Shown here one piece after another: positions 2,225-18,637 of a DNA stretch of 64,000 bases. Source of the DNA: Anastatus disparis (taxonomy: Eukaryota > Arthropoda > Insecta > Hymenoptera > Eupelmidae). The position numbers and the translations under genes were made by a program. The notes beneath the pieces are model-generated. The model ran no database searches. It had not been told where the DNA came from and worked only from the letters and a program-made list of their open reading frames with translations. How positions within the stretch are numbered: the first letter of the stretch is position 1; every line of letters begins with the position of its first letter. Location of the stretch: the NCBI GenBank assembly GCA_017163975.1, contig JAFFSR010000264.1:248001-312000 (forward strand). The letters run 5' to 3'.

Positions 2225-2230
2225 GACGTC
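2225..2230. repeat. Polinton target-site duplication, left (GACGTC)
   Basis: The hexamer GACGTC abuts the left terminal repeat and recurs at 19950-19955 next to the right one. Polintons make 6-bp target duplications. The hexamer is its own reverse complement. Confidence 0.85.
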
Positions 2231-2340: not shown

Positions 2341-2365
2341 AGACGGAACATTGGTGCCCCAAGAA

Positions 2366-2461
2366 ATAAATGCACACGCACACACACACTCACACGCACG
2401 CATGCACACACAAATAAATAAACCATATTTTATATATATATTTATATTTATATATTTATAT

Positions 2462-2504
<43 letters not shown>

Positions 2505-3277
2505 AAAATACTAATTCAAGGTCGATGACCTTAAAAATAAAGTATTATACATAGCTGTAGATAGAGTAATATACGCATACATTAACACACCCATTATATA
2601 CATACACAGGCATTCACACATTGTGTACTACAACATATAACCTTGGTCCAAAGTGCCACATAAAAATTGCTTACCACCTAACTACTGTTGGAGACATACA
2701 CAACCATTCACACATTGTATACCACAACATTTAACCTTGGTCCAAAGTGCCACATAATGATTGCTTACCAGTTGATCACCGTTGCAAACACATCGAGATC
2801 TAGACCCACATTATAGAACAACCTATCTGTGCGGAGTTTCGATGAAGACTGATAGTTAAGACGAATCTTCACCCTTAATAACCCAAACTCCCCCACCGCA
2901 AAATAAAAATATTACATACCATTCTTACACTACGAATAGCAACTTGATACTCTTTGCAAGAAAATATTAATAAGTGTATTTTGAGAAGCATATTTTAAAA
3001 TGAAGTTAAAATAATCATAATTAATAAAAAATCACATACCATTCTCACGCTAAGATTGTTAATCTGACTCTTTTTGCAATTCATTTTATGAAAAAGACGT
3101 ATTTTAGGGTGCTGACATTATAAAATTTAAAATTTCAACGTAAGAAATCTCTCTCTAAGACGTATGTACGGGTGCTGATTTTGTAAAACTTAAAATTTTT
3201 CTCTCTCTCTCTCTTTCTTTCTCTCTTTACCCTATTTTATTATTATAAAATAAATAAAAAATATGCGTTTATATAAG

Positions 3278-3322
<45 letters not shown>

Positions 3323-3705
3323 TCTCTCTTCTCTTTCTATCTTTCTAATATGTATGTCTATACATACATACATACATAATACGTGTACACAAAAATCTGT
3401 ATAAAATATATACATTCGTGTATATATATATACACAAATCGTATGCAGATGATATGCAAATGATGGACAAATAAGCCATGCATTAGAATTGGTTATTATA
3501 TTTTAAATATAATATATATTTATTTCCATTACATTACATTACCAAGGTATCGAATCAATAAATATAGAGAATTAGTGATACAAAAATGATAAAAAGTATC
3601 AGGAGCCCAAAACATAAGAAGAAGTATAACTATTCTACCTCTTGCGATTAGTTGTTTTGACATTCATTGTAAATACGCCCAAGTTGCGTATATAACTAAG
3701 AACAA

Positions 3706-3747
<42 letters not shown>

Positions 3748-4788
3748 ATACATACATATGCAAATCATATGTAAATATAAATATTTATCAAAATCGAATA
3801 TATTATATTAAAAGATATTTAATATTTAAAAATTATTATTCATAAATTATCAATCATAACGCAATAGATATCGACAATTCATGATAAAAATAAGAAAAAA
3901 GTATCAGGCTATTATAAAAACTATTCTACCTCTTGCGATTAGTTGTTTTTGACATTCATTGTAAATACGCCCAAGTTGCGTATATAACTTAGAACAACTG
4001 TATATATATATATATATATACATATGCAAATCATATGTAAATATAAATATTTATCAAAATCGAATATATTATATTGGAAGATATTTATTATAAATTATTA
4101 TTCATGAATTATCAATCATTACGCAATGAATATCGATAATTTATGATAAAAATAATAAAAAGTATCAGGCTATTATAAAAAAGAAAGAGGTATACCATCT
4201 GTTATTTTGACAGTAGATGTGTATGTAATAAAAGAATTCACAATTTATATATTAAGGATATTACCTAATATCGATATTTATTAATAGTTTAAGTACGTAT
4301 GCAAATTAGGTGCATATGCAAATTTAGTGTATGTATAAAGTATGTAAAGCACAAAGATTTAAGAAGTATAATAGCCATTACTAGGCCGATGTAGAATGGG
4401 TGTTCTTAAGAGATGCACTCAAGTCATTCGTTGTAACAGGATCAGCCCAAGTTTGATAACGCGACACGAGAGACGAATGAAATTGCATAACGCACGCCTT
4501 AAAGAAAAAAGTCCCACCTTCTTATAAGCGAAATAATGGCAACCCGAGTTTTAATTATGTACATGCTAACTAAATATCTTATATGAGATTTTTAATAAAT
4601 TGTTAATAATTATTAAAGATTATTAAGAATATTGAATTTCGTACTCACAACTCAGTGGTTCCCACAAAACTGATGTATTTCTTGCTACGTTGGAGGCTTA
4701 AATATCAAATTATTTTTACAGGTCTCGACAAGTTAAATATTATATTTTTACGCGCATGCTCACCCTAAAATTTATGATTTATTTTCGG
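2366..4788. repeat. Polinton left non-coding region with microsatellites and tandem duplications
   Basis: No gene found. Contents in order: TA/TATT-rich tract (2430-2500); two ~95-bp units with 'cattcacacattgt...aaccttggtccaaagtgccacata' (2610-2680 and 2703-2756); two diverged ~130-bp units containing 'cataccattct' (2890-3070); (CT)n tracts (3195-3230 and 3280-3340); (TA)n; and a long duplication carrying 'ctattctacctcttgcgatta' and a (TA)n core (about 3596-3902 and 3903-4170). The last units begin with 'gtatcagg' and end in the same AT-rich segment. Confidence 0.7.
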
Positions 4789-4797
4789 TATAAATAG
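4789..4797 (+). promoter_or_regulatory. Probable TATA box of the first Polinton transcript
   Basis: TATAAATAG lies about 66 bp upstream of the first ATG (4863) of the exon chain leading into the polymerase. Position and sequence suit a core promoter; an initiator would be expected near 4820. Confidence 0.55.
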
Positions 4798-4862
4798 ACA
4801 ACGATTTATGGTTCTGATATGAGTCTGAGTTTAAACATTGAAACAAGAATAACAAAAAGAGA

Positions 4863-6614
4863 ATGAATAAAAAAGACTTATATAATATCTTAATAGCTAT
4901 TTTAAATGTGGCTCTCCTTCGTGAACCACAAATAAAACTATTTTGTAATTATGCATGGCGCAAAAATTTGAAAACTTGCTCTATAAATGAGCTGTTAAAA
5001 AAGATTAAATTCATCATAGGACTTTGCGGGCTACGTACTTTAGCCTATATGTTTAAGCGAAATATTTTTACCGATAATCAGATACTTGATATAGTTGGTC
5101 GTTGTATTAAGAGCAGAGGAATGCAAGATGCACCTCAAGTCAGACATCTCATGTTACATCATCGTGTCACTACAGGTAAGTTATGCATATTTTCTATCAT
5201 GAATCGAATAACTAATCTAGAAATGTATTTTTAAATCACGAAATCGTAGCCAATAATCGTTCAATAATCTATATCTTTTTTATTTACCACCGGAGAATTT
5301 CGCGGCATAAGACTTTTATGTTGTAAATAAAACAATATATTCAAAAATATGTTTTACTAAAAAATATTGATTGCCAATATCGAACCAATACTCGATAACT
5401 TACTTATTTACGGTCAAAAAATTTTGCAAGCTAATACTTTTATGTTGTAAATACAATGATAAATCCAAAATATATTTTACAAAAAATATCGATTTTCAAT
5501 ATCGGATCAATAATCTATAGATTTTTTATTTATGGTCGGAGAATTTCGCGGGATAAGACTTTTTTGTTGAAAATAAAATAATAAATCTAAAAATATGTTT
5601 TACAAAAAATTGATTTCCAATATCGGGCCAATACTCGATAACTTACTTATTTACGGTCAAAAAATTTTGCAAGCTAATACTTTTATGTTGTAAATACAAT
5701 GATAAATCCAAAAATATGTTTCACAAAAAAATACCGATTTCCAATATCGGATCAATAATCTATAGATTTTTTATTTATGGTCGGAGAATTTCGCGGGATA
5801 AGACTTTTTTGTTGTAAATAAAATAATAAATCCAAAAATATATTTTACAAAAAAATATTGATTCCCAATATCGGACCAATACTCGATAACTTACTTATTT
5901 ACGGTCAAAAAATTTTGCAAGCTAATACTTTTATGTTGTAAATACAATGATAAATCCAAAAATATGTTTTACAAAAAAATATCGATTTCCAATATCGGAT
6001 CAATAATCTATAGATTTTTTATTTATGGTCGAAGAATTTCGCGGGATAAGACTTTTTTGTTTAAAATAGTGTAACTTTGATAGATATGATATTAAAAAAT
6101 TTTCAGACCTGCAAAACATGATGGAGGACAGTGGTGGGGATGAATTACTGATGAATCTTCTGTCAGCAGAAGAACAGCTGCTTAGTTCGAGAGATCCTGC
6201 ACTACTGCCGCCCACCGAAGAAGTACGAGAAGTTATAAATTCGTTAGATGATCACGTGATTTATGATCATAGTACTCCAAACACGATGTTGGAGGGGGTA
6301 ATTGCTGATACTACAGCGCCACCACGACCTAATGAACCGTTGCCTGGTTGTTCTCACTGGAATGACCAGGATGCACAAACGTCGAATAAAATAGTTTCAC
6401 CTGAAACTACATTATCTGCAATATCGACACCAGGTACAGAAGATCTCGACTATTGAGATGTATGTAATTTTATAATTGTATTAATTTTTATATATTACTG
6501 CTCGGTATTGTAGACGAATGTCTTCAACAGGGAGATGGTACTTCTGCTCAGGAACACATTACCATTCATGAAGAAACTTCACGATATTACAAACAGTTTA
6601 AGCTTCAAGGGTGA
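4863..6614 (+). CDS. Spliced exons upstream of polB (probable polymerase N-terminal extension)
   Basis: Three exons can be read: 4863-5175 (donor CAG|GTAAGT), 6107-6433 (acceptor TTTTCAG; donor CAG|GTACAG) and 6514-6614 (acceptor TTGTAG). The reading phase stays open across both joins. The last exon ends in TGA at 6612-6614, and this frame is exactly that of the polymerase ORF, which continues immediately after the stop. The simplest reading is one long polymerase gene broken by a single nonsense codon; a separate ~220-aa upstream protein is the alternative. Exon 1 is hydrophobic/basic with no recognised domain, exon 2 is acidic and Ser/Thr/Pro-rich. If the second splice is not used, exon 2 ends at a stop at 6456. 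Confidence 0.6.
5252..6060. repeat. Tandem satellite inside the first polB intron
   Basis: About 3.2 copies of a ~245-bp unit. The landmark 'gagaatttcgcgg(g/c)ataagac' recurs near 5293, 5537, 5783 and 6032. Each unit is made of two related halves of about 120 bp ('tttatggtcggagaatttcg' and 'tttacggtcaaaaaattttg'). Intron 5176-6106 consists almost entirely of this array. Confidence 0.8.
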
Positions 6615-9600
6615 CAATTAAGAGTGTCGATATTACCCCCACCAGCTAATGCAAATGTATATGGCTGGTTGGAGGCTGCTATAAACGATTTATATCGTCA
6701 CGTGTGTGAATATGCACAACCATCAGATTATATTGGCATGACTATAAGCTCTGAACGTTTTGTGCACGGGTCACTATGGATTTCTTTTAGACTGCTTCGT
6801 GATTTTTCACCGGTAGATTTACTAGAACTGATAGCTAGTATAGCGCAGAGTAATGATGGTTTCGAAATTGACGATGTTTTGAATGTTGAAGTCAGTACTG
6901 TGACTAAACCAGAGGGCCGGGGTCGTGTGTCTCTCACTAGCGAATCAGTTTTTAAGAAATCCATTCTAAATATTGAAAATAGCGACAGTCTTTGTCTTCC
7001 ACGCTCGCTAGTCGCTGCTCACGTATACGCCATACGTGGTCAAACGCGTAGTGGAATTTTCCATGACAGATGGAATAAAATAAGACATCATACAGCACAA
7101 TATCAGAAAGTGCAAGCATTGAAACTTGTAAGAGCTGCGAGAGTTACGATACCCGAGACGGGCTGTGGTATAGAGGAGATTAAATTATTTCAAGAATATT
7201 ATGCACTCTTTGGAGTCGCAATCGTTGTTTATTCATTTCAAAATTTTGCTCGTGGATATAGACCGCTTTTCGATGGCACACGTTTCGTACACGACGTTGG
7301 TAATGTCGTTAGATATACTCTAAATATCATGTATTATGAAAATTCCAGACATTACCAGCCAATTTTAAATTTACTCGCAGCGGCTGGGAGTCGAGGCTAC
7401 TGTATACCTTGCAATAAAAAATTTAGTCATACGAAAAATCATAAATGTGAACAAAAATGCTATAAATGTTTACAGAAGCCTCCTTGTGATATAAATCAGG
7501 AAAAAATAAAATGCTTTCAATGTAGCAGAGATTTTTACGGCACCGTTTGTTTTGAAAATCATAAAAATTCAAAATCTTTCGATAGTTCTCGGTCGGTATG
7601 CGAGAGTATAAAAATTTGTCGTGTATGTAGCAAAACAGTGCGCATCAACGATAAAGAACCACATGATTGTAATACGATATTTTGTAAAATATGTAATGGT
7701 AAAAGACCAATAGAACATCTTTGTTACATGCAACCTATTGTCGATAAAAAAGGATTCATGATGAATAAAAAAACAATTCTTTATTTATTTTATGATTTTG
7801 AGACTCAGCAATCAGAGAGCATTTTAGGCTGTGAGGCTGAAAAAGTAAGGCTGCATGTACCAAATTTATGTGTTGTTCAGCAAGTGTGTAGTTACTGTTT
7901 GAACGATGAAAATGTATCAAATTCTTGCGAAGTATGTGGGATGCGCGAGTATGTGTTTGAAATTGACCCCGTGAAACAGCTAGTCGATTTGGCCTTGGCA
8001 CCAAGAAAAAATTTCAAACAAATCGTTTGTATAGCACACAATGCGCAGGGTTTTGATGCACAATTTATTCTTAAACATTTAACAGAACGTAAAGATCTCA
8101 GAAATAAGCCAAATGTAATTTTAAACGGGTCAAAAATAATCATAATGGAAATTTTATCGGTTAAATTCATAGATAGTTTGAATTATCTACATATGGGTTT
8201 AGCTGCACTACCAAAAGCTTACGGTCTTGTTAATATCGAGAAAGGTACGTTCCCTCATCTTTTTAATACACCGGAAAATCAGAATTACGTGGGAGAAATG
8301 CCACCGATATGCACTTTTTCGCCAGATTCGATGAAGATCGAAGAGCGGCGCGAATTTATGCAGTGGTATAACGAAAAAAAAGCTGAAAATTATATATTTA
8401 ATTTTAGAAATGAAATTATAAAATACTGTAAGCAAGATGTAAAAATTTTACGTTTAGCATGTCTGGCTTTTCGCAATACCTTCATCGAATGTGGTAATAC
8501 AGATCCATTTGTAGAGTGCGCCACCATCGCATCTTCTTGCATGCGTGTGTATAGAAAAAAATTTTTACAAAAAGATACAATAGGTATTATACCTCAAGGT
8601 GGTTATAGACAAGCAAATAAACAGTCTATGAAGGCGATGCGATGGTTGTGCTGGATGGAAAATGTGCTGAATCGACAAATTCAGTATACCGTTCGTGCAA
8701 GAGAAAAGAGGCTTCCCGAAGGCCCTCTAGTGGACGGATATTGCGTACTTGAAAATGGAAAGAAAATCGTTTTACAATTTCACGGGTGTTATTGGCATGG
8801 TTGTGTCTGGTGTTACACAATAAACCGAGACTCTAGGCTCGTAAACGGTGAAAATATGGACGAACGTTTCGAGAGAACCGCGCGGATATCGGAAAAAATA
8901 CGAGCCCATGGTTATGAACTTATCGAAAAGTGGGAGTGTGATTTCGATCGAGAGTACTCGGAAAACGAGAATATGCGGTCGTACATTGAAGATAAGACAC
9001 GAAAATGGCACGCGCCGTTAAATCCTCGAGAAGCATTTTTTGGCGGGCGAACGGGCAATACAGTCAAAATTTACGATGCAAAAGAGGGTGAGAAAATAAA
9101 ATACGTGGACGTGTGTTCATTATATCCATATATCTGTAAATACGGTCGATATCCCATTGGTCACCCAACTCTCTACGTGGACGAGGATGAGTGTCGCTCT
9201 CTGGTGGGTCAAACGAATGACATAAGTCACGTTGAAGGTCTTATTAAATGTGAAGTATTGCCGCCGCGAAATTTATATCATGCTGTACTCCCCGTTAAAA
9301 TGCATAATAAGCTTTTGTTTCCACTGTGTCGAACATGTGCTGAATTAATGTATACCGCAGATTGTGACCATGAAAATCCTGATGATCGTGTTTTTATCGG
9401 TACGTGGGTTGCTGACGAGTTGAGAAAAGCTGTTCAGATGGGCTATATCATCCGAAAAATATTTGAAATATGGTCTTATAAAATTACTCAGTACAACAAA
9501 GCCACGGGTCAGGGTGGTCTATTTCCAACTTATATCGATAAATTTTTCGCTGAGAAAACGTACGCGTCGGGTTACCCTTCGGAATGTGCTGTCGGTGACG

Positions 9601-10424
9601 AAAACGCGATTGCTCGATATATTGAGGAATTTGTGCAACAAGAGGGCATAAAATTAGACAGAAATCGAATAAAATATAACGCTGGTCTGAGATCTGTAGC
9701 AAAACTCTGTTTAAACTCATTGTGGGGTAAATTTGGTCAACGAGAAAATATGCCAAAGACCGAAGTGGTGGATGATCCACAGAGGTTGTTTGAATTACTC
9801 TGTAGTGCTGAGAGCGAGGTTGACTCAATTTTACCGATCGACGATACGACAATTTACGTATGCTGGCACAACACAGAAGCGGCTGTCGAGCCATCGGCAT
9901 TATGTAACGTTGTCGTAGCCGCTTATACCACAGCCTTGGCGCGTTTAAAACTCTACGAAGAATTGCAACCGTTGGGTAAACGTGTATTGTATTACGATAC
10001 TGACTCTATTGTGTATGTAAGTCGCGTGGGTGAGTACGATGCGAAAACAGGGCCGTTCTTGGGTGACTTGACCGACGAATTGGCCTGTTATGGTCTTGGC
10101 ACAAGCATCACATCATTCGTCTCTGGTGGACCCAAATTTTACGGATATAAATATTTGACACCAGATGGCGTTGAAGGATGTGTTTGCAAAATCAAGGGTA
10201 TAAGACTTAATTCGTCGGTGAGTCAGAAAATAAACTTTGATTCCATACGAAATCTTATTACTGGTGAAATACCGCCACTTTTTGCAAACTATGACGCTAT
10301 TAGACGCACACGGTTTCACGATGTTATAACACGACCTGAATGTAAAATATGCGAGCCCGTGTACTCAAAGAGACGATTTGTAAATAACGAGATTAGCTAT
10401 CCATACGGCTATAAATCTAATTAA
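6615..10424 (+). CDS. polB: Protein-primed family B DNA polymerase (Polinton pPolB)
   Basis: Replicates the element by protein priming. The open frame runs directly from the TGA at 6612. The first possible start in the track is GTG at 6624 (1266 codons) and the first in-frame ATG is at 6738; the true N-terminus probably lies in the upstream exons. Counting from 6624: Cys/His-rich zinc-binding block at ~255-375; 3'-5' exonuclease motifs YDFET (~388), AHNAQGFDAQF (~471) and YCKQDVKIL (~600); a Vsr-like segment HGCYWHGC to WECDFD (~719-775); polymerase motif A DVCSLYP (~829), motif B KLCLNSLWGKFG (~1027) and motif C YYDTDSIVY (~1122). All catalytic acids are present and there is no internal stop. 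PolyA-like AATAAA follows the stop. Confidence 0.95.
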   Translation, partial: QLRVSILPPPANANVYGWLEAAINDLYRHVCEYAQPSDYIGMTISSERFVHGSLWISFRLLRDFSPVDLLELIASIAQSNDGFEIDDVLNVEVSTVTKPEGRGRVSLTSESVFKKSILNIENSDSLCLPRSLVAAHVYAIRGQTRSGIFHDRWNKIRHHTAQYQKVQALKLVRAARVTIPETGCGIEEIKLFQEYYALFGVAIVVYSFQNFARGYRPLFDGTRFVHDVGNVVRYTLNIMYYENSRHYQPILNLLAAAGSRGYCIPCNKKFSHTKNHKCEQKCYKCLQKPPCDINQEKIKCFQCSRDFYGTVCFENHKNSKSFDSSRSVCESIKICRVCSKTVRINDKEPHDCNTIFCKICNGKRPIEHLCYMQPIVDKKGFMMNKKTILYLFYDFETQQSESILGCEAEKVRLHVPNLCVVQQVCSYCLNDENVSNSCEVCGMREYVFEIDPVKQLVDLALAPRKNFKQIVCIAHNAQGFDAQFILKHLTERKDLRNKPNVILNGSKIIIMEILSVKFIDSLNYLHMGLAALPKAYGLVNIEKGTFPHLFNTPENQNYVGEMPPICTFSPDSMKIEERREFMQWYNEKKAENYIFNFRNEIIKYCKQDVKILRLACLAFRNTFIECGNTDPFVECATIASSCMRVYRKKFLQKDTIGIIPQGGYRQANKQSMKAMRWLCWMENVLNRQIQYTVRAREKRLPEGPLVDGYCVLENGKKIVLQFHGCYWHGCVWCYTINRDSRLVNGENMDERFERTARISEKIRAHGYELIEKWECDFDREYSENENMRSYIEDKTRKWHAPLNPREAFFGGRTGNTVKIYDAKEGEKIKYVDVCSLYPYICKYGRYPIGHPTLYVDEDECRSLVGQTNDISHVEGLIKCEVLPPRNLYHAVLPVKMHNKLLFPLCRTCAELMYTADCDHENPDDRVFIGTWVADELRKAVQMGYIIRKIFEIWSYKITQYNKATGQGGLFPTYIDKFFAEKTYASGYPSECAVGDENAIARYIEEFVQQEGIKLDRNRIKYNAGLRSVAKLCLNSLWGKFGQRENMPKTEVVDDPQRLFELLCSAESEVDSILPIDDTTIYVCWHNTEAAVEPSALCNVVVAAYTTALARLKLYEELQPLGKRVLYYDTDSIVYVSRVGEYDAKTGPFLGDLTDELACYGLGTSITSFVSGGPKFYGYKYLTPDGVEGCVCKIKGIRLNSSVSQKINFDSIRNLITGEIPPLFANYDAIRRTRFHDVITRPECKICEPVYSKRRFVNNEISYPYGYKSN

Positions 10425-10468
10425 ATAATAAATAAATGTTGATATATTATTACCGAAGTAAAATATAT

Positions 10469-10526
<58 letters not shown>

Positions 10527-10632
10527 TTATAGAATTAAGACAAAAACAATTTTGTAATAAATTTCATAATTTATTGAAATTAAAATTAATATAACAGAAT
10601 AATAAATTTATTTTCTGTTTATTAAGTGGTCG
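10425..10632. repeat. Intergenic (TA)n tract between convergent genes
   Basis: About 50 bp of perfect TA repeat (10474-10524) sits between the 3' ends of polB (+) and the PP1-adaptor-like gene (-). AATAAA-type signals face each gene: AATAAATAAATG just after the polB stop, and two AATAAA copies on the minus strand between 10596 and 10624. Confidence 0.7.
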
Positions 10633-10821
10633 TCAATTTTTCATAATTATAGGTTCCAAAATAATCTTCATTCTTTCCACTCTCATTTTAAATCTCTCTC
10701 TGTCACGAGCCGCTTGCTCCCACTCTCCACGTCGTGCTGCACGGCTCGCGTAATCCCACACGCGTATCACGTGAATATCCGGTTTACCTTCCTTGAAATG
10801 CACCTTTTTTGTTTGATTCAT
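10633..10821 (-). CDS. PPP1R15/GADD34-DP71L-like protein phosphatase 1 adaptor (62 aa)
   Basis: The first ATG on the minus strand is at 10819-10821; the frame is open a little further upstream but without an ATG. Seen: a PP1-docking RVxF-type motif KVHF (residues 6-9), a short strand leading to W22, then ARRGEWEQAARDRERF (29-44), rich in Arg, Trp and Asp. This spacing and the R-x-G-x-W...ARDRxRF pattern are those of the C-terminal core of cellular PPP1R15 (GADD34/CReP) and its viral relatives DP71L (asfarvirus) and ICP34.5 (herpesvirus), which bring PP1 to phosphorylated eIF2alpha to restore translation. The size is close to the short viral forms. It is the only minus-strand gene in the element, convergent with polB, and followed by its own AATAAA. 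A small captured host exon is possible, but the frame is intact. Confidence 0.85.
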   Translation of the reverse strand: MNQTKKVHFKEGKPDIHVIRVWDYASRAARRGEWEQAARDRERFKMRVERMKIILEPIIMKN

Positions 10822-10872
10822 TATTATTATTATTTTTTCTTCAAGATACGGATAATCACCACACTTCCTCAC

Positions 10873-11356
10873 GACAAGTCTCTATAAAATTTTATCAAAA
10901 TTTAAAAATTTGAGTCTTTAATGAATTTTCGTTAAAATTTGATTACCTTTGCTCAAATTTGTTGACTATAACTTATTTATTTTCACGATACGAAAACTTG
11001 TACAGCACTAACCTATAAATGCTGCTGCTTTTACTTTTATACTGGAAATGTGGTGGTGGTGGTGGTGGTGGTGGTGGCAGGTACAAGTAGTGATGGTGAC
11101 GAGCGCTTTTGAGTAAATAACAGGTTAATACTTGTTAAGCTTTTCCAGCCATATAGCTAAAGAGCGGAGTAATGCTGGCGTCAGCCAGCTATATGGCTAA
11201 TCAGCTAAACGATTGGCTAGCGCCAGCACGATACTGCTCGCACACGCGCGCGCCGCCGCCGCCGCCGCCGCCACCCCCCACTCTTGCTGATCGTATATGT
11301 AGAGTGGTTCGAGGATGTGATGAGGTTAGTAGTAGAAGTTTAGCAGCGGCGGTAAC
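10873..11356. other. Non-coding spacer with (GGT)n and (CCG)n runs before the ATPase gene
   Basis: Probably a divergent promoter region for the minus-strand PP1-adaptor-like gene and the + strand ATPase. It has a GGT repeat (11050-11076), an inverted pair 'agccatatagctaa'/'cagctatatggct' near 11148-11200, and GCGCG/CCG repeats (11240-11275). An open frame through this stretch (start 11172) gives poly-proline and looks spurious. Confidence 0.55.
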
Positions 11357-12034
11357 ATGGACGTTTGCAGGTGGGTGCATCCGTGGACTTTGATGATTTG
11401 TGGACCCAGCTCGTGTGGTAAAACAGTATTCGTGAAGAATTTTTTGCATCACATTGATCGCATGAGTGATACGAAATTCGAGCGTATACTCTTGTATTAT
11501 ACCGAGTGGCAGGCAATTTACAAGGAGTTGGGTGAGGGAATCGAATTTCACGAGGGTTTACCAAAGAGCGAAGACTATGCCAATGATCCACGAGCAAAAC
11601 TCTTGATTCTCGACGATCTGATGAGAGAATCGTCCAGCAGAGCTGTAGTCAATCTCTTTACCAAAGGCAGTCATCACAATAACTTGAGCGTCATCTTTAT
11701 CTCGCAAAATCTCTTTCATCAAGGACAGCGAGAAATTTCTCTAAACTCTAATTACATCGTGGTATTTAAAAATCCGCGCGATCGAGCGCAAATAAATCAT
11801 CTGGCGCGCCAAGTCTGCCCCGAGGAGCCTCGTTTTTTGCAAGAGGCATATCTCGATGCCACAGCACAACCACACGGCTATTTGTTCATAGACCTGAAGC
11901 AGGGTACGCCTGAAAATGTGAGATTTCGTACTTGTATATTTCCGTTTGACAAACATCAGTACGTTTATGTGGCTCGTTGCACACCCATAAAAGCTGGTGC
12001 TCGCTCGAATAATGTACCAGTCGTGCGATTGTAA
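11357..12034 (+). CDS. HerA/FtsK-like genome packaging ATPase
   Basis: 225 aa with ATG start. Walker A GPSSCGKT (residues 16-23) follows HPWTLMICG at the very N-terminus, and Walker B is LLILDDL (82-88). A later VIFISQNLF stretch fits the sensor strand of A32-type packaging ATPases. This is the standard packaging enzyme of Polintons and related viruses, pumping DNA into the capsid. The stop codon overlaps the next start (TAATG), suggesting one polycistronic or closely packed transcription unit. The frame is intact and length is normal for the family. Confidence 0.9.
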   Translation: MDVCRWVHPWTLMICGPSSCGKTVFVKNFLHHIDRMSDTKFERILLYYTEWQAIYKELGEGIEFHEGLPKSEDYANDPRAKLLILDDLMRESSSRAVVNLFTKGSHHNNLSVIFISQNLFHQGQREISLNSNYIVVFKNPRDRAQINHLARQVCPEEPRFLQEAYLDATAQPHGYLFIDLKQGTPENVRFRTCIFPFDKHQYVYVARCTPIKAGARSNNVPVVRL

Positions 12035-12381
12035 TGGAGCCGGTGAGACGTAGTCGTAGCAGCAGACCAATTCCAGAAAAGTACTGGACTCAGCTACATT
12101 TCTTGTGTAAAAGCGAACTCTATAAAGTTAAGGCTATAGTACGCGAAGCAAATTCTAAACTTATAACGTACATTTGCGAGTGTGCTTTGAACATTTTACG
12201 TGGAAATATTCCACTCAGCAAGTATTATAAGAGACAATTGCGAAAATTCGCACCTCTGTTGCGAAAACTCGCTAAACCGGGTAGTTTGGAGGTAAAAAGA
12301 AAATTGATGGTAAAATCAGCATATTTACTGCGGCTAATTGTGAAACCTGTTTTATCGGCATGGAGTACGCAAGAAAAATGA
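12034..12381 (+). CDS. Small basic Polinton protein, probable core/minor virion protein
   Basis: 115 aa, strongly basic. The segment 'LITYICECALNILRGNIPLS', followed by repeated KRQLRKF/LLRKLAK patterns and a hydrophobic C-terminus, is what I recall of a small ORF conserved beside the ATPase in many Polintons and adintoviruses. It is probably helical and DNA- or membrane-associated; its exact role is not established. It overlaps the ATPase stop by one base and the next gene by 22 bases, a compact viral arrangement. Frame intact. Confidence 0.6.
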   Translation: MEPVRRSRSSRPIPEKYWTQLHFLCKSELYKVKAIVREANSKLITYICECALNILRGNIPLSKYYKRQLRKFAPLLRKLAKPGSLEVKRKLMVKSAYLLRLIVKPVLSAWSTQEK

Positions 12382-13190
12382 TTTTAGTACCGCAAGAGTG
12401 CTTGGAGCAACAGCATCAGCAGCAACAGCATGACGTAGCAACTACCAATCATGCAACACCAGCATCCAGTGTCCAGACACCTGGTACAGCCACGACACGC
12501 CTCGACGAGGAAATGAGTAAAATTTTACATTCTGCGGGTGATGAGCGTCAAAAATCTTTGCAATATCAGCAAATCTTGCAGCGTTACTTGCATCTAAGAG
12601 AGGAGGAGAAGGATGAGAGTGGGGGCATAATACGTCCACACGAGACAGCATTATTAGAAACGGAAACGACAATGGATAGAGGCAATAATGACGAAATCGA
12701 CGACAAACAGATTGTCGAGTCGGTACCGCAGAAATTTCGAAGCAATGCTAGACATCTCATTAGATACTTGCGACAAGCTGGTAATATTGAATGGGACAGT
12801 CGTGGTATAATCAAACTAGATGGCGCTGTTGTCGAGGGTACTAATATTGTCGATTTGGTGAACGAGGCTATGAGAAGTAGAAAAAGACCACCACCGCGCG
12901 GATACAAACAGTTTGCACGCGTCTTGCGACAAGTTAGTATACCTCGAGAATTCATTGGTAACGATCAACTGTGGCGTAAGATTGCATCTCATAGCGCTGA
13001 CTCATCGCCGTCATCGTCGTCAGAAAACGAAGGTTATTATACTTCAACAGCTACTAGTCAGACGAGTGTAAAGGAGAAAGAAGTTGAGAGTGCGAAAAAG
13101 CGTAAAAAAGTTGGTAGCGAGTTGGCAGCTACGCCATCAACCCCTGCAAAAAAGAGTCGTCTCGAGCAGCTAAAATGGAACCGTATGTGA
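12360..13190 (+). CDS. Conserved Polinton protein of unknown function (276 aa)
   Basis: Starts at ATG 12360 inside the previous gene. The N-terminus is Gln/His-rich. At about residues 48-80 there is a helical 'LDEEMSKIL...QILQRYL' segment. The central conserved part is 'VESVPQKFRSNARHLIRYL', 'IEWDSRGIIKLDG', 'GTNIVDLVNEAMRSRK' and 'IPREFIGNDQLW'. The tail is Ser/Lys-rich with nuclear-signal-like KKRKKV. The central pattern resembles a protein found beside capsid genes in many Polintons and adintoviruses, without a proven function; a scaffold or DNA-binding role is only a guess. Overlaps the next ORF by 16 bases. Confidence 0.6.
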   Translation: MEYARKMILVPQECLEQQHQQQQHDVATTNHATPASSVQTPGTATTRLDEEMSKILHSAGDERQKSLQYQQILQRYLHLREEEKDESGGIIRPHETALLETETTMDRGNNDEIDDKQIVESVPQKFRSNARHLIRYLRQAGNIEWDSRGIIKLDGAVVEGTNIVDLVNEAMRSRKRPPPRGYKQFARVLRQVSIPREFIGNDQLWRKIASHSADSSPSSSSENEGYYTSTATSQTSVKEKEVESAKKRKKVGSELAATPSTPAKKSRLEQLKWNRM

Positions 13191-13693
13191 AAGCATGGAA
13201 GGAAGTAATGGAGGGGGTGGAGGAGGAGGAGGAGGGGGAGAAAACTGGTACTTTTATAGACCAATTGATTTCAGTTGTACCCTTTGAAATGCATCTGCCA
13301 GGCTACCAGTTTCTCGGCCCTGGCACACATCTCGAAGAGCGTCTCAGATGCGGTCAGAGAGGAAAAAACCCTCTTGACAATGCCTGTCTAGAGCACGATA
13401 TTTCATATTCAAATAAAAAAATAACGAATCATATAAAAGCCGACAGACTGCTGGCTAAACGAGCATTTTCACGCATGCTCTCGGAGACTGCGGATGGTAA
13501 TGAAAAGACTGCAGCTGGTATTACTGTTTTGTGCATGATCAGCAAAATTGCGTTTGATAAATTTTTGAAACGCATTAAAAATACATTTAAAAGACAGCAA
13601 AAGAAAGAGAGAAAGCTGATTTATAAGAGGAAGAGGAGCAATGAGAAAGAAAGAGAAAAGGAAGAAGAAGATGTCAAAGCCGGACGGCCTTGA
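13175..13693 (+). CDS. Parvovirus VP1-type phospholipase A2 protein
   Basis: 172 aa. The calcium-binding loop pattern YQFLGPG (residues 44-50) and the catalytic DNACLEHD (68-75, His-Asp pair) match the small secreted-type PLA2 domain known from parvovirus VP1, where it lets particles leave endosomes. Related domains occur in some adintoviruses and Polintons. The C-terminal third is highly basic (KRIKNTFKRQQKKERK), perhaps for DNA or nuclear targeting. The gene overlaps the integrase reading frame by 53 bases. A second catalytic Asp normally follows the HD motif; D88 in 'IKADRLLAKRAF' is a candidate. Confidence 0.75.
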   Translation: MEPYVKAWKEVMEGVEEEEEGEKTGTFIDQLISVVPFEMHLPGYQFLGPGTHLEERLRCGQRGKNPLDNACLEHDISYSNKKITNHIKADRLLAKRAFSRMLSETADGNEKTAAGITVLCMISKIAFDKFLKRIKNTFKRQQKKERKLIYKRKRSNEKEREKEEEDVKAGRP

Positions 13694-14763
13694 GCATTAT
13701 TACTATAATCTTTCTGCACCATCAGCGTACGCTGGTGCTCATCTACTGAAACACGCGAAACCCAAAAAATTTGATAACAATACCATCGCCAAGTGGCTGG
13801 AGAGTCAGGATGCACATACCTTACACAAACTCGTGAGACATCGTTTTCCTCGTCGACATTACAACGTTTTCAGCCCCTTTGAGGTGTGTGGGAAGCTGAC
13901 TTGGCAGATTTTAGATCACTTAAAACCTACAATGATGGGTACAGCTATATTCTCATTGTCATTGATGCACTTTCAAAGTTTGCCTGGGCAGAGCCTCTTC
14001 TCGACAAAACGAGCCGAAGCGTTGCTGTAGCATTGGAGAAAATTTTATCACGATGTAATGATAGACATCCTATTTACCTACAGACTGATAAAGGTAAGGA
14101 GTTTATCGGTCGAGAGGTGCAAGAGGTGCTAAAAAAGAAACACATTACCTACCGAGTCGTCAGAGACCCTGATATAAAGGCAGCCATTGCCGAACGCTTT
14201 ATTCGAACTCTCAAAGGTCGAATCTGGCGATACTTTACTCACTCGCGCACAAGACGTTATATAGATGTTTTGCCAAAAATTGTGACGTGTTACAACGAGT
14301 CGTGGCACAGTGCCATAAAAATGCCCCCTTCCAAGGTCAACTTATATAATGCTCACGTGGTACGTCGAAATTTGACGTTGCGTTACGGCGAAAAAAGCCG
14401 TTTAGAGTAGCTAAATACAGCGTTGGTGATCTGGTTCGTGTCAGTCGTGCCAAGACAGCCTTCAGGAAAGCATACGAGGGTGGCTGGACTCTGGAGCTGT
14501 TTAAAATTATAAGAGTCGACACAAGACAACAACCACCCGTTTATACTTTGGCAGATCTTGGTGGGGAGAAAATTGACGGATATTTTTACGAAGAACAGTT
14601 GAGCAGAGTGCGCAAGGATTTAGATAGCGAAGCGTTTGAGGTTGACGAGGTTTTGAAGAGTAAAGGTAGGGGGTCGAAAAAACAATATTTGGTCAGTTGG
14701 AGGGGATATCCAGAAAAATTTAATTCTTGGATAGCGGCTAAAGATTTGAAAAATTTACAATGA
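13641..14763 (+). pseudogene. Retroviral-type integrase with chromodomain, broken by two frameshifts
   Basis: Reads in three frames: 13641 (or ATG 13671) to ~13888, ~13889-14400, and ~14390-14763. N-terminal part: DNA-binding domain with 'SQDAHTLHKLVRHRFPRRHY'. Catalytic core DDE: D in WEADLADF (~13889), D in QTDKGKEF (~14080), E in AERFIRTLKG (~14190). The end carries a chromodomain, 'KKQYLVSWRGYPEKFNSW' (~14680-14735), typical of Polinton integrases. The first break lies in a GTGTGTG stretch (13884-13890); the second lies in or beside an A6 run at 14390-14395. Its stop overlaps the start of the next gene (ATGA). Both breaks sit in slippage-prone runs, so real decay, sequence error or translational slippage cannot be told apart. 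The A6G run is not phased like a canonical -1 heptamer. Confidence 0.85.
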
Positions 14764-15586
14764 ACGATGAATTTTACATGGTTTTACCGAGCAACAGCAG
14801 CAAGTTTGTCTTTCCACACAATGTGGCGACACATTTCACAACACAATTATCACAAAATTTTTATCTTCATGGCGACTGGTGTGTAGGACTCACGGAAATT
14901 CAAATACCTCTCACATTTCAGCATATATCAATAGTTGAGCGGGAGGGAGTCATTTCCGTTAAAACAGCCAAACGTGAAATGGCGAATGTTTTGCGAGAAA
15001 CAGAAGAGACTCAACAGGGGGCCGAGGTGTTTGCCAGAGTCAAACCTGGTGTTTATCGTGATATTGAAAGTCTCTTGGAAGAAATAAATAATCTCGAGAA
15101 TGTGAAAAATCATTTATATTTTGAAATCCAAGCTGGTGGCTATGTACGGGTTAGATGTCGATGTGGAGAAGATTGTACAACTTATAAGCACACGTTTACA
15201 CTATCGGAAAAATTACTTAGAATTTTAGGTCTGGAAAATGTACCAATTTTCTCTTGCAAAGGTAATAAAGAACACTACATTACCGGCAATCGTCCAGCAA
15301 ATCTTGTAAACGGGTTGCCAACCGTGCTGATGGTTTACAGCAACATTTGCCAGCCTTACGTAACAGGTGACATGCGCACGAGCTTACTACGTATAGTCTC
15401 GCTTCATTTGCGCGATTACGTTTACGGAGGTGTTGAAATTAAAACTTTTCACCACCCATGTACCTACCACTGCTGTCTTCAGCGTTTCAGTCGATCGAAA
15501 TAGATATAAGAGACGAACACGGATTTCCCATTCCATTCGACTACGGTACGTTGACTGTAACGCTTCACTTTAAGCGCATCCGATAA
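14760..15586 (+). pseudogene. Probable penton/minor capsid protein, frameshifted near its end
   Basis: The frame from ATG 14760 is open to 15503 (247 aa). It starts with 'FYMVLPSNSSKFVFPHNVA' and 'LHGDWCVGLTEIQIP', a signature I recall from a widespread Polinton/adintovirus protein thought to be the single-jelly-roll minor capsid (penton) protein. At a CCC run near 15455-15457 the frame shifts; the expected conserved tail (IEIDIRDEHGFPIPFDYG, then TLTVTLHFKRIR) is in the -1 frame and ends with TAA at 15584-15586, two bases before the next ATG. The protein identity is from pattern memory, so the penton assignment is moderate. Confidence 0.65.
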
Positions 15587-15587
15587 A

Positions 15588-16112
15588 ATGTCTGAGTTTG
15601 AAGATTTCTTCAATAACCAAATGGTTGGTGGTGGGGGTAAGTGCGTTAGAGCTGGTAAACCTTGTTTTGGTTATCACCAGTCGGGTGCAGGAGTAGGTAG
15701 TTTTTTGAAAGGTCTCTTCCGAGCAGCTATACCGAAGATCAAGCAAGGTGCAAAAGTGGTCGGTAAAGAGGCTCTCCGAGCGGGTAAAAATATCTTAGAT
15801 GATGTCACTCTAGGTGGCAGACCTGTCAAAGAGGCGGCCAAAGAGCGCATTCGCGAGAGTGGTAAAAATCTCAAAAGAAAAGCTGACGTTGTTCTGGACA
15901 AATTGCTCTTGGGTGAGTCGAGTGCAAAAGATGGGGAAGAATCTGAATATAAAAAGAAGAACGAGACATCGTCAGTTCAGTCGTCGAGTGCAGCTGGTAC
16001 TACAAACACCTCAGCAGCTAAACGCTCGAAAAGTGGTAAGGTTGCGAAAAAGAAGAAGAAGAAGAAGCAGAATAAGAAAGCACGTGTAGCTAGAGATATT
16101 TTCGAAAATTAA
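15588..16112 (+). CDS. pVI/pX-like minor virion protein
   Basis: 174 aa, ATG start one base after the preceding stop codon. It has a Gly-rich N-terminus (QMVGGGGKC), then an amphipathic stretch 'GSFLKGLFRAAIPKIKQGAK' and 'VGKEALRAGKNILDDV' (about residues 36-69), and a Lys-rich tail. This layout is like adenovirus pVI and pX and corresponds to a small protein usually found next to the capsid gene in Polintons and adintoviruses. Likely a membrane-active or DNA-condensing internal capsid component that is cut by the element's protease. Frame intact. Confidence 0.6.
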   Translation: MSEFEDFFNNQMVGGGGKCVRAGKPCFGYHQSGAGVGSFLKGLFRAAIPKIKQGAKVVGKEALRAGKNILDDVTLGGRPVKEAAKERIRESGKNLKRKADVVLDKLLLGESSAKDGEESEYKKKNETSSVQSSSAAGTTNTSAAKRSKSGKVAKKKKKKKQNKKARVARDIFEN

Positions 16113-16121
16113 AATTTCAAG

Positions 16122-17422
16122 ATGGCGTTGTTGCATACAGAATCTTGTCAGTCAATCAAGTCGGAATTATCACTCTTTGAATTACCCTCGACACAGACTG
16201 CAATTGAAGGCTCTTACTGGGTACAGTATAAACCGATATCTTCACTCAACGACCAATCATCAATTGAATTTACAATCCCTGGCAACACTGAATATCTAGA
16301 CTTGGCTCACACAATGTTAAGTGTGAGTGTAAGTGTAACATGCACTAGTGCTGAACCACCTAAGGATCCGAGCGTTGGACCAATAAATAATCTTTTGCAT
16401 TCGTTGTTTAATCAAGTCGACGTGCTATTCAATCAGAAACCTGTTTCACCGCCAAACAATGCTTATGCATACAGAGCTTACATTGAAACATTACTAAATT
16501 ATGGTCCAACAGCTAAAAAGTCTCATTTAACGAGTGGTTTGTGGTACGATGATACAGCAGGAAAATGGACGATACCACAGGTGGTAATGTAGGTCTCAAT
16601 AAACGTAAGGCACTCATGATTGGCAGGAAGATTGATTTACTCGGCCATTTACATTGTGATGTTTTTAATCAAGACAAATTATTACTGGGTGGTGTTGAAG
16701 TTAGAGTGAGGCTTGTGCGTTCTCGTGATGGATTCTGTCTCATGGATCCCGCTGGTGCTTTCACGGTAAATATTACCGAGGCTACGCTTTTTGTGCGTCG
16801 GGTAAGATTAAATCCTTCACTTGTGCTAGCACACGAAAAACTATTGTCACAGACTACTGCAAAATACCCACTGACACGTGTAGAAGTTAAGGCTGTTACG
16901 TTACATAATGGTGTGCATGGGGAAACAATCGACAATGTCATATTAGGTCAACTGCCGAAAAGAATTATACTCGGTTTTGTTGAAAATAAAGCTTACAACG
17001 GAGATAAAAGTCTTAACCCATTCAATTTCAAGAATTTTAATATAAATTTTTTGTGTCTGTACGTTGATGGAATGCAAGTGCCATCGAAGCCCTTACAGCC
17101 AGATTTCAAAAAAAGCAAAATGTACGTTGATGCTTATCATACACTTTTTTCCGGCACAGGTATTCACTTTATGAATTCAGGCAACTCGATTAGCCGTGAA
17201 GACTATCCAAACGGTTACTGCCTATTCGCTTTTGATTTGACACCTGATTTATCGGCGAGTGATGGTAGTCATTGGAATTTGATAAAAAATGGTAATGTAC
17301 GAATTGATGTTAGATTCGACGACCCACTAGAGGGCGCTGTAAATTGTATAATTTATGCTGAATACGACAATTTGCTCGAAATTGACTCGTCGAGACAGGT
17401 TGTCGTGGATTATAGCGGTTAA
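16122..17422 (+). pseudogene. Major capsid protein (double jelly-roll), single frameshift
   Basis: Two overlapping frames, 16122-16592 and 16565-17422, together about 430 aa. N-terminal 'SIKSELSLFELPSTQTAIEG' and 'YLDLAHTMLSVSVSV', then 'NLLHSLFNQVDVLFNQKPVS' and 'NAYAYRAYIETLLNYG', are characteristic of the Polinton major capsid protein. The second frame holds the downstream jelly roll ('DLLGHLHCDVFNQDKLLLGG', 'RIILGFVENKAYNG'). The break is at a short A run, 16562-16565, so one indel separates the two frames. Gene order penton, pVI-like, capsid is usual. Confidence 0.85.
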
Positions 17423-17447
17423 GTAGTGGTGGGGATATATTTCTCAC

Positions 17448-17484
17448 TATTTAAGTAAAGCAAAGCCAGCTTTATTATCTCAGT
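17448..17484 (+). promoter_or_regulatory. Core promoter: TATA-like box plus TCAGT initiator
   Basis: TATTTAAG at 17448-17455 and the arthropod initiator TCAGT at 17480-17484 are spaced as in insect core promoters (~32 bp from box to the A of TCAGT). It lies just upstream of the ORF at 17512, suggesting a separate transcript for the 3' gene block. Confidence 0.6.
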
Positions 17485-17511
17485 CGGCGAGCAACTTTCA
17501 TTGCAAACAGT

Positions 17512-18159
17512 ATGGACGTGGTAATTGATGTGCAGTTTTTAAAGGACAACAAAAATCGTTTGATTCCAAAGGAGGTGGCTGTACTCGGTATTCATAAAAA
17601 CTTTATCGCTCATTGGATTGTGGCGCCTCCTTGTAATTTAAGACGCTTACCTAAAAATGCTTTGAGACAGAACAATTGGGTGACGCTGAATCATCATGGT
17701 CTGGAGTGGTACGAAGGTGATATATCGATAAAAAGATTATACAAAAATTTGGAAGATATTTGCATGAATTGTCGTACAATTTTCGTGCGAGGTCAAGAAA
17801 AGCTTGAACTACTTTCCAAGCTCACCACCTGTAAGATTGAAAATTTAGAAAAAGAACAAGATTGTCCAGCTTTTAGAAATTTAAATTTCAGCAGTGTACA
17901 GTGCGTGCATCATTACTTAAAATCACCTTATTCAAATTACGTGTGTGCACTAAATAACGTTGCTAATCTGAAACATTGGCTACTGAAACTTAACCCCAGC
18001 GTAAAATCGCTGATTTCGGAAGAATTTTTAGAAATTCTCCGCAATGAATTCAAAAGAGATTGTTCGATATCTGATGAGGATCAAGTTTCACGCAGTAGGC
18101 GTTTATCCAGCGGATCGGATTCCTCTGATGTGGGTGAAACCTTGTGCGTTTGTACTTAA
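17512..18159 (+). CDS. RNase H-fold/DEDDh-exonuclease-like protein, possibly inactive
   Basis: 215 aa. VIDVQ near the N-terminus followed by KEVAVLG, then 'WVTLNHHGLEWYEGD', 'IFVRGQEKLELL', 'KEQDCPAF' and a C-terminal 'CVHHYLKSPYSNYVCALNNV' with 'LKHWL' resemble a family common in arthropod transposons and viruses that looks like a degenerate DEDDh exonuclease. The first motif lacks the D-x-E pair (VQ instead), so catalysis is doubtful. The last ~38 codons overlap the protease gene in another frame. Recognition is by pattern only. Confidence 0.5.
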   Translation: MDVVIDVQFLKDNKNRLIPKEVAVLGIHKNFIAHWIVAPPCNLRRLPKNALRQNNWVTLNHHGLEWYEGDISIKRLYKNLEDICMNCRTIFVRGQEKLELLSKLTTCKIENLEKEQDCPAFRNLNFSSVQCVHHYLKSPYSNYVCALNNVANLKHWLLKLNPSVKSLISEEFLEILRNEFKRDCSISDEDQVSRSRRLSSGSDSSDVGETLCVCT

Positions 18160-18487
18160 TACGCAAAATTATAACCAGCGTGGTGCGCACTGGGTTGCCA
18201 TATACGTTGATAAGTATGCCACAGGTGTGTACTTTGATAGTCTTGGTAAACCACCACAAATTCAACAACATTTACGACGTATTCAGCAAAATTGTAAAAA
18301 ATTTAGATGGAATAATAAACGCTTACAAAGCGAATATTCTAACGTTTGTGGTCATTATTGTATCATGTTTCTGTATTATATGTCTAGCGGATTGGGTTTC
18401 AAGAAATTCTTGGAAAATTTCTCACAGAACTTGCAAAAAAATGATACTATAGTCAAGAATTTTGTGGGAAAAATCTCGTACGAGTAA
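18044..18487 (+). CDS. Adenain-like cysteine protease (virion maturation)
   Basis: 147 aa from ATG 18044, which overlaps the preceding ORF by 116 bases. 'FHAVGVYPADRIP' opens the domain as in adenovirus-type proteases. The catalytic set is visible: H49 in GAHWVAIY, D65 in GVYFDSLG, Q95 and C102 in 'QSEYSNVCGHYC'. The family (C5, Ulp1 fold) cleaves capsid and core proteins during particle maturation in adenoviruses, and Polintons carry it as a hallmark gene. Frame and active site intact. Confidence 0.9.
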   Translation: MNSKEIVRYLMRIKFHAVGVYPADRIPLMWVKPCAFVLNTQNYNQRGAHWVAIYVDKYATGVYFDSLGKPPQIQQHLRRIQQNCKKFRWNNKRLQSEYSNVCGHYCIMFLYYMSSGLGFKKFLENFSQNLQKNDTIVKNFVGKISYE

Positions 18488-18557
18488 TATGATATTTGGT
18501 TGTCTCTGATTGGTCGCACAACAACTTTTTGCGGCGCCCCCACCAATTTTTTTACAG

Positions 18558-18583
18558 TATAAAAGAAGCGGCACCCACTCAGT
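18558..18583 (+). promoter_or_regulatory. Core promoter: TATAAAAG plus TCAGT
   Basis: TATAAAAG at 18558-18565 is followed by TCAGT at 18579-18583. The spacing is somewhat shorter than the usual ~30 bp. It precedes the ORF at 18638 by about 55 bp. Confidence 0.6.
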
Positions 18584-18637
18584 CTAGCCACAGTTTGACG
18601 ACAGTGATAGCAGCAGTAACAACAAAGCTCAAGCAAG

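What the first reader, a model, noticed from the sequence alone, without database searches (positions are those of the whole stretch)
10633..10821. A Polinton carries a miniature PPP1R15/GADD34-DP71L-like eIF2alpha phosphatase adaptor
Seen: a 62-aa minus-strand ORF with KVHF (PP1-docking RVxF type) followed, at the right distance, by W22 and ARRGEWEQAARDRERF, the hallmark of the eIF2alpha-directed PP1 subunit family. Known: asfarvirus DP71L and herpesvirus ICP34.5 use this core to reverse eIF2alpha phosphorylation. I do not know of one described in a Polinton or adintovirus. Inference: the element, or the virus it derives from, counteracts PERK/PKR-like shut-off of translation in its insect host. 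Its lone antisense position next to polB looks like a captured accessory gene.
Basis: partly seen in the sequence, partly recalled or inferred. Interest (0 to 1): 0.95.

Follow-up and report, generated by a model that had tools for sequence, protein, structure and literature searches.

The report
Polinton gene mimicking GADD34 phosphatase adaptor
A virus-like mobile element (a Polinton) carries a small, conserved gene, found at least 150 times in this genome, whose protein matches the core of the cell's GADD34-type adaptors and would likely let the element undo the cell's emergency stop on protein synthesis, a trick so far described for larger DNA viruses such as African swine fever virus.

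Summary
Confirmed and extended. The 62-codon minus-strand ORF at 10633-10821 lies inside a 17.7-kb Polinton (PolB, packaging ATPase, integrase, chromodomain, adenain-like protease, 6-bp target-site duplication). Its protein is a PPP1R15-core homologue: phmmer against PDB finds PPP1R15A at 4.7e-8 and ASFV DP71L at 9.6e-5. The published eIF2alpha-binding motif occurs nowhere else in six frames of the window. The genome gave 150 scored matches; all 90 that I read lie antisense beside PolB and/or the ATPase. 67 of 90 have 71 codons, the length of DP71L; the window copy ends early. Two subfamilies differ with dN/dS about 0.1. The same genome holds a cellular-type PPP1R15 core exon with the long C-terminal tail that the Polinton proteins lack, and a second element lineage with the gene in another slot and orientation (a capsid domain upstream at the one place read). 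A homologue without function stands in nr under Megastigmus wasp adintovirus (Eupolintoviridae). So this is a viral mini-PPP1R15, new as a recognised Polinton gene; the kind is known from asfar-, herpes-, avipox- and an insect virus. Activity on eIF2alpha is inferred. Pfam PF10488 is not passed (14.6 of 26.1 bits), but this genome's own PPP1R15 exon misses it too (26.0).

The parts
10633..10821 (-). Mini-PPP1R15 ORF (62 codons and stop in this copy; 71 codons in 67 of 90 sister copies)
10795..10806 (-). RVxF-type PP1 docking motif, residues 6-9 (KVHF)
   Evidence: role of the motif from PMC5346070 and PMC8500838 (passages)
10678..10734 (-). Residues 30-48 (RRGEWEQAARDRERFKMRV), full match to the published eIF2alpha-binding motif
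2231..19949 (.). Polinton carrying the ORF (extent read from terminal inverted repeats and target-site duplication)
   Evidence: inverted repeat 2225-2336 / 19844-19955, 95% over 112 nt, hexamer included; ends read
2225..2230 (.). Target-site duplication GACGTC, left
19950..19955 (.). Target-site duplication GACGTC, right
6624..10424 (+). DNA polymerase type B, organellar and viral (PF03175, E 8.6e-41), convergent neighbour
11357..12034 (+). Packaging-type ATPase (Pox_A32, E 1.2e-5), divergent neighbour
13175..13693 (+). Phospholipase A2-like protein (PF08398)
13886..14410 (+). Integrase core (rve, PF00665)
14548..14763 (+). Chromodomain (PF00385)
17512..18159 (+). Polinton gene of unknown function; its homologue (29% identity) lies directly before the mini-PPP1R15 in the second element lineage
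18044..18487 (+). Adenain-like / Ulp1-like cysteine protease (PF00770, PF02902)

Best explanation
The ORF encodes a short PPP1R15-core protein, conserved under purifying selection among Polinton copies of this genome, that is predicted to dock the host phosphatase PP1 through its KVHF motif and to steer it with its C-terminal helix (likely together with G-actin) onto phosphorylated eIF2alpha, which would keep translation running while the element is expressed. Shown here: homology to the PPP1R15 core, the docking and substrate motifs, an ORF without intron and with its own ATG, an antisense place beside PolB and/or ATPase in all 90 copies read, selection on the protein, presence in a second lineage (capsid domain upstream at the one place read), and a homologue filed under a named eupolintovirus. 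Inferred: binding of PP1, actin and eIF2alpha, and the benefit to the element (probably against PERK/GCN2-type shut-off during a virus-like replication phase).
For: PDB sequence search: PPP1R15A 4.7e-8, DP71L 9.6e-5; five-row profile (four rows from this genome, one from elsewhere): PPP1R15A 6.3e-10, DP71L 2e-7, PPP1R15B 2.7e-3; the genome's own cellular exon scores hardly better against PPP1R15A (5.7e-9). Human PPP1R15A residues (PMC8500838) by alignment: W582=W34, R587=R39, R591=R43, F592=F44, R595=R47 are kept. The motif occurs in 67 of 90 copies, RVxF-type in 87 of 90. A-B subfamily dS 0.557, dN 0.054 (69 A and 19 B copies without indels), ratio 0.10, against 0.27 for the PolB end (51 A, 12 B) and 0.18 for the ATPase (57 A, 10 B); 22 nucleotide differences between one A and one B copy give 6 amino-acid changes where 5000 random placements gave 14.6 on average and never fewer than 7. 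49 homologues at E<=0.1, among them a Megastigmus wasp adintovirus protein. C lineage: double jelly-roll domain upstream at one place (PF21738, 6.2e-38).
Against: No experiment and no transcript. Pfam PF10488 cut-off not reached by the window protein (14.6 of 26.1 bits). R594, an eIF2alpha contact of human PPP1R15A, is M46 here (it is S in the genome's own PPP1R15 exon). The R612 tail that binds actin is absent (the matching RARA segment is absent from DP71L too, PMC5346070). 23 of 90 copies miss the strict motif, 13 of them by a shared T at the R589 position (read). 8 of 90 copies have stops, 17 of 150. Fold searches with the model gave nothing (pLDDT 70).
Confidence: 0.82

Rival explanations
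1. The protein binds PP1 (and perhaps actin) but serves another end: it titrates PP1 or directs it to a different phosphoprotein, for instance one of the element's own replication or capsid proteins.
For: RVxF motifs are generic PP1 handles (PMC8500838); the R612 actin tail is missing and R594 is replaced.
Against: The substrate helix is the most constant part: 15 columns from A29 to R47 are invariant in the 8 rows of A3 (four from this genome, four from elsewhere; one row, P0004, lacks the RVxF part). DP71L lacks the RARA segment and is active (PMC5346070).
Confidence: 0.1
2. It is a recently captured piece of this host's own PPP1R15, not an old element gene.
For: Same core, and a tree with A+B beside the host exon is not rejected (p-AU 0.42; only 52 columns).
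Against: 71% identity to the C-lineage element protein against 54% to the host exon; the host exon groups with a long-tailed protein (96/87); the host exon starts after a splice-acceptor-like TTTTCAG right at the motif and ends in HRMRIWHERFED, the ORF has its own ATG and no such tail; A-B dS 0.56.
Confidence: 0.08
3. The gene acts for the host: copies have been retained because the extra eIF2alpha-phosphatase activity helps the host, i.e. domestication.
For: Many intact copies.
Against: Each of the 90 copies read is still beside Polinton genes, and the selection is seen between element subfamilies, as expected of element fitness.
Confidence: 0.04
4. Chance ORF with a look-alike motif.
For: Short, antisense, in an AT-rich spacer; Pfam below cut-off.
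Against: dN/dS 0.10, third-position bias, homologues elsewhere, E-values.
Confidence: 0.01

Closest known systems
African swine fever virus DP71L (short form)
   Same: 70-72 aa (PMC5346070) against 71 codons in 67 of 90 Polinton copies; RVxF, the eIF2alpha-binding motif, a Leu-rich end (LSAVL there, LEPVL in subfamily B), no RARA/R612 tail; second-best molecule in the PDB searches
   Different: Carried by a large cytoplasmic virus; here by an integrated Polinton. Activity of DP71L is tested, of this protein not
Cellular PPP1R15 (GADD34, CReP, dPPP1R15) and the exon found in this genome (L097)
   Same: Core from RVxF to PVL, 54% identity to the genome's own exon
   Different: Cellular proteins are long, the core is encoded by a separate exon (PMC4394352) and goes on into an actin-binding tail (HRxxI...RF in the exon here); the Polinton protein is the core alone in one ORF
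Herpesvirus ICP34.5, canarypox protein 231, insect virus coGV-gp036
   Same: Viral PPP1R15 cores; the insect virus member is named in an alignment legend of PMC4394352, avipox in PMC8301327, ICP34.5 in PMC5346070
   Different: Not compared letter by letter here; no Polinton among those that I saw. That CoGV is a Choristoneura granulovirus is recalled
Megastigmus wasp adintovirus hypothetical protein (P0013, nr)
   Same: 85 aa, 58% identity over 90% of the query, virus placed in Eupolintoviridae
   Different: Deposited without a function; the one paper in the library that holds the virus's name (PMC8541124, listing only) was not read

Membership tests
Viral short PPP1R15-core adaptors (DP71L kind) | RVxF PP1-docking motif near the N-terminus | tested here: met
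   KKVHF in P0001; 87 of 90 copies by the loose pattern used
Viral short PPP1R15-core adaptors (DP71L kind) | eIF2alpha-binding motif R-x-[GNL]-x(1,2)-W-x3-[ARLV]-x-[DN]-[RG]-x-RF-x2-[RLVK]-[IVC] | tested here: met
   Window copy and 67 of 90 copies; motif as quoted in PMC5346070
Viral short PPP1R15-core adaptors (DP71L kind) | Significant sequence similarity to a solved member | tested here: met
Viral short PPP1R15-core adaptors (DP71L kind) | Contact residues W582, R587, R591, F592, R595 | tested here: met
   Alignment, residues from PMC8500838
Viral short PPP1R15-core adaptors (DP71L kind) | Contact residue R594 (human PPP1R15A) | tested here: not met
   M46; but S in the genome's own PPP1R15 exon and not a fixed position of the motif, so not taken as defining
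Viral short PPP1R15-core adaptors (DP71L kind) | PP1 binding and eIF2alpha dephosphorylation | not testable with these tools
   needs experiment
Cellular PPP1R15 | C-terminal actin-binding tail with R612 | tested here: not met
   Protein ends before it; host exon L097 has HRMRIWHERFED. Not filed as a cellular PPP1R15
Pfam PF10488 (formal membership) | Gathering score 26.1 bits | tested here: not met
   14.6, 14.8 and 14.1 for 71-codon A and B copies; host exon 26.0, C 20.2, D 22.7, P0013 21.3, P0034 26.7, P0043 34.2
Polinton / Eupolintoviridae | Family B polymerase, rve integrase, A32-like ATPase, adenain-like protease | tested here: met
Polinton / Eupolintoviridae | Terminal inverted repeats with 6-bp target-site duplication | tested here: met
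Polinton / Eupolintoviridae | Double jelly-roll major capsid protein | tested here: inconclusive
   Window 16565-17422 has no Pfam family, 16122-16589 only PF04769 at 0.075; met at one C-lineage place (PF21738)

The most novel reading that the evidence does not exclude
Animal Polintons (Eupolintoviridae) possess a widespread family of their own mini-PPP1R15 proteins, which has entered at least two element lineages in one genome at different slots and orientations and moves as a cassette with a history of its own; this would mean that these 'transposons' go through a virus-like phase in which they must defeat the host's eIF2alpha stress response.
Probability: 0.5. Interest if true: 0.82.

Novelty: new member of a known kind. 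Interest (0 to 1): 0.7.

Why it matters
Whether animal Polintons still live as viruses is open: for vertebrate Mavericks, particles had not been observed (abstract of PMC8097293 in the listing). A conserved gene whose only known use is to undo a stress-induced stop of translation speaks for such a phase and gives it a test. It adds a further group of DNA viruses that use the PPP1R15 core, in a form as short as DP71L (which PMC5346070 calls the shortest known with this function), and well over a hundred natural copies in one genome that show which residues tolerate change.

Tried and rejected
Pfam as sole yardstick: rejected because the genome's own PPP1R15 exon fails the cut-off too. Viral contigs (IMG/VR): four scans with mini-PPP1R15 queries and one with the C-lineage capsid piece, none with a relative. 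Phage records: none. Fold searches: nothing at E 0.001 or below. Trees of 52-53 rows by 52 columns are too short to settle origins: the tail label needed 7 changes in the first tree and 2 in the second (P0049 and P0050, long branches, dropped before it), P0013 grouped with A+B in the first and elsewhere in the second; AU tests reject neither A+B with the host exon (p 0.42) nor all long-tailed rows as one side (p 0.32). Recent cassette swap between backbones: not supported, the nearest neighbours by PolB, ORF and ATPase are of the same subfamily for all 66 copies that hold all three; what remains is a cassette dS 3.5 times that of its neighbours. Papers (all 10 searches used): 0 papers hold both 'eIF2alpha phosphatase' and 'polinton' (29) or GADD34, Maverick and transposon (36); in the listed parts (20 of 733; 40 of 662) no paper has both a Polinton/adintovirus term and GADD34/PPP1R15; PMC11071296 holds none of eIF2, GADD34, PP1, phosphatase; an adintovirus paper sought by a recalled DOI is not held. 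Only open-licence papers are in the library, so 'not described' means not found there. Context of family D: not read.

Full report
WHAT IS THERE. It lies in the spacer between a family B DNA polymerase (6624-10424, PF03175, E 8.6e-41) and an A32-like ATPase (11357-12034), both on the plus strand, in an element with a phospholipase A2-like protein, rve integrase, chromodomain and adenain-like protease. Terminal inverted repeats (112 nt with the hexamer, 95%) at 2225-2336 and 19844-19955 and the hexamer GACGTC on both sides (read) put the element at 2231-19949. It is a Polinton and the ORF is well inside it.

IS IT A PPP1R15 CORE. phmmer of the 62 aa against PDB sequences gives PPP1R15A (7nzm, 4.7e-8; 4xpn, 6.1e-7), ASFV DP71L (9nb9, 9.6e-5) and PPP1R15B (4v0x, 0.048) as the best hits. 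A five-row profile (four rows from this genome, P0002 from elsewhere) gives 6.3e-10, 2e-7 and 2.7e-3. Pfam PF10488 scores 14.6 bits (E 0.027), below its cut-off of 26.1, behind an unrelated family at 0.025. That failure says little: the core exon of this genome's own PPP1R15 scores 26.0 and would be left out as well.

RESIDUES. PMC5346070 (passages) quotes the eIF2alpha-binding motif of Rojas et al. 2015; it matches RRGEWEQAARDRERFKMRV and nothing else in six frames of the window. In 90 copies the motif is kept in 67, an RVxF-type motif in 87, both in 65, and 8 have a stop. 13 of the 23 misses share a T in place of the R that corresponds to human R589 (my reading); the C lineage has H there. 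PMC8500838 (passages) names W582, R587, R591, F592, R594, R595 and R612 of human PPP1R15A. By the alignments, W582, R587, R591, F592 and R595 are kept; R594 is M46 (S in the host exon); R612 lies beyond the end. DP71L lacks the matching RARA segment too, and two leucines of its LSAVL end matter (PMC5346070); the Polinton end is LEPII (A) or LEPVL (B), set against it by eye.

COPIES. The genome (939 Mb, 399 contigs, unnamed) gave 1128 candidates, of which the tool scored 150, 84-100% identical; 133 of 150 have no stop in the match. I read 90 of the 150: the first 30 as cut out by the search and 60 of the next 70 by hand; left out were 10 rows of ranks 31-100, four of them with stops, and ranks 101-150. 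In 75 of 90 the ORF is antisense to both PolB and ATPase within the 3 kb held, in 8 beside the ATPase alone, in 7 beside PolB alone, in none otherwise. 83 of 90 have ATG in register and 67 of 90 read 71 codons; the window copy ends at 62. AATAAA follows within 80 nt of the stop in 66 of 90, against 20% in shuffled stretches.

SELECTION. The copies fall into subfamily A (72, with the window) and B (18; L070 counted as A and as B). Between them dS is 0.56 and dN 0.066 over all 90, median ratio 0.12; with indel-free copies only, 69 A and 19 B, dS 0.557, dN 0.054, ratio 0.10, against 0.27 for the PolB end (51 A, 12 B) and 0.18 for the ATPase (57 A, 10 B). One A-B pair differs at 22 sites, 16 at third positions; 6 amino-acid changes against a mean of 14.6 and a minimum of 7 in 5000 random placements. 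So the frame is under constraint at least as strong as its neighbours'. Its dS, from about 35 synonymous sites, is 3.5 times theirs (0.158 and 0.158). In the three A-B pairs the 200 bp on each side of the ORF are 71-85% identical per 100-bp step (gaps left out), where the steps in the genes beyond are 92-100%. The cassette thus has its own, older or faster history; but backbones and cassettes sort together in 66 of 66 copies, so a recent swap is not shown.

RELATIVES ELSEWHERE. Three protein searches reached 49 proteins at E<=0.1. One is an unnamed protein of Megastigmus wasp adintovirus in nr (P0013), which the taxonomy puts in Polintoviricetes, Eupolintoviridae; one is Nasonia 'PPP1R15A-like' / 'Protein DP71L' (P0034), one a Cotesia fragment (P0039); the rest are shown without organism. 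By eye two kinds stand out in the alignment: mini proteins that stop soon after a P-V-L-x-K-K-like end, and proteins that go on into HRxxI...RF. The genomic context of these proteins cannot be read with the tools at hand.

THE HOST'S OWN GENE AND A SECOND LINEAGE. One of the 20, L097 (C254:2967579-2967698), is the cellular core: TTTTCAG directly before VRF and HRMRIWHERFED before the stop. The other 19 are one B copy (L107), 13 of a family C (MKKVHFKEQPEIHV... and like) and 5 of a family D (MNKKVHFNP...). Before 25 of the 38 matches, same strand, lies the end of one gene (positions compared; one search scored 150 of 181 candidates, so 25 is a lower bound). At the one C copy whose upstream 0.9 kb I read (L112), that gene is 29% identical (E 7e-19 for the pair) to the window's 17512-18159 and is preceded by the end of a double jelly-roll domain (PF21738, 6.2e-38), which BLASTP does not relate to the window's 16565-17422 (E 0.095). 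So a second Polinton-type lineage carries the gene, in sense orientation, after capsid-side genes. The 1.2 kb behind one C copy (L111) showed no Polinton gene. The context of D was not read.

TREE. A is 71% identical to C, 62% to P0013 and 54% to the host exon over 52-53 columns; the host exon groups with long-tailed P0043 (96/87), A and B with four unnamed mini proteins (98/88) and, less surely, C (94/72); the tail label needs 2 changes against 11.8 in shuffles, 0 of 500 as low. In an earlier tree without L097, C and D it needed 7. An AU test does not reject A+B with the host exon (p 0.42), and holding A+B+C together gives a better tree than the free search. Hence: an element-borne family is favoured; recent capture from this host is disfavoured but not excluded.

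MECHANISM. By PMC8500838 (passages) the N-terminal half of the core binds PP1, and the helix after it binds G-actin on one face and eIF2alpha on the other. The predicted model (pLDDT 70) has strands at 3-20 and a helix at 23-61. I commit to the same work here: PP1 brought to eIF2alpha-P, translation kept on. The kinase that is countered is inference; that insects have PERK and GCN2 and lack PKR is recalled.

NOVELTY. Viral PPP1R15 cores are known in asfar-, herpes- and avipoxviruses, and an insect virus member is named in an alignment legend of PMC4394352 (passages). I found none described for a Polinton, Maverick or adintovirus in ten searches of an open-licence library, with the limits told under Tried and rejected. 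It is a new member of a known kind, in a kind of carrier where I found it not yet recognised.

Noticed in passing
L091, L092, L094, L096, L098, L100, L103-L106, L108-L110, L112 (family C): A second mini-PPP1R15 family in the same genome, in most places in sense orientation after a gene related to window 17512-18159 (not at L098); at the one place read further (L112), a double jelly-roll capsid domain lies upstream.
   Followed up: partly
L093, L095, L099, L101, L102 (family D): A third, more divergent mini-PPP1R15 family (40% identity of L101 to the window's), repeated in the genome; its neighbourhood was not read.
   Followed up: no
window 10425-11356: The spacer that holds the ORF is far more diverged between subfamilies A and B (71-85% in the 200 bp on each side) than the genes around it (92-100%), and the ORF's dS is 3.5 times that of PolB and ATPase.
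   Followed up: partly
window 16122-17422: Two overlapping frames in the expected place of the major capsid protein suggest that this gene is split in the window copy; no convincing Pfam match to either piece.
   Followed up: no
window 5250-6104: Five direct repeat copies, spaced 243 and then 124 nt, inside the Polinton, left of PolB.
   Followed up: no
window 43686-48638: Series of plus-strand ORFs (505, 225, 223 aa and others) that by eye hold YqaJ-like nuclease and Ulp1-like protease pieces, possibly another large DNA element.
   Followed up: no
window 35365-36023: Long simple-repeat ORFs (GFMVY-type units) in two frames.
   Followed up: no
window 26244-29053: Endonuclease and reverse-transcriptase ORFs of a non-LTR retrotransposon, read by eye.
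   Followed up: no
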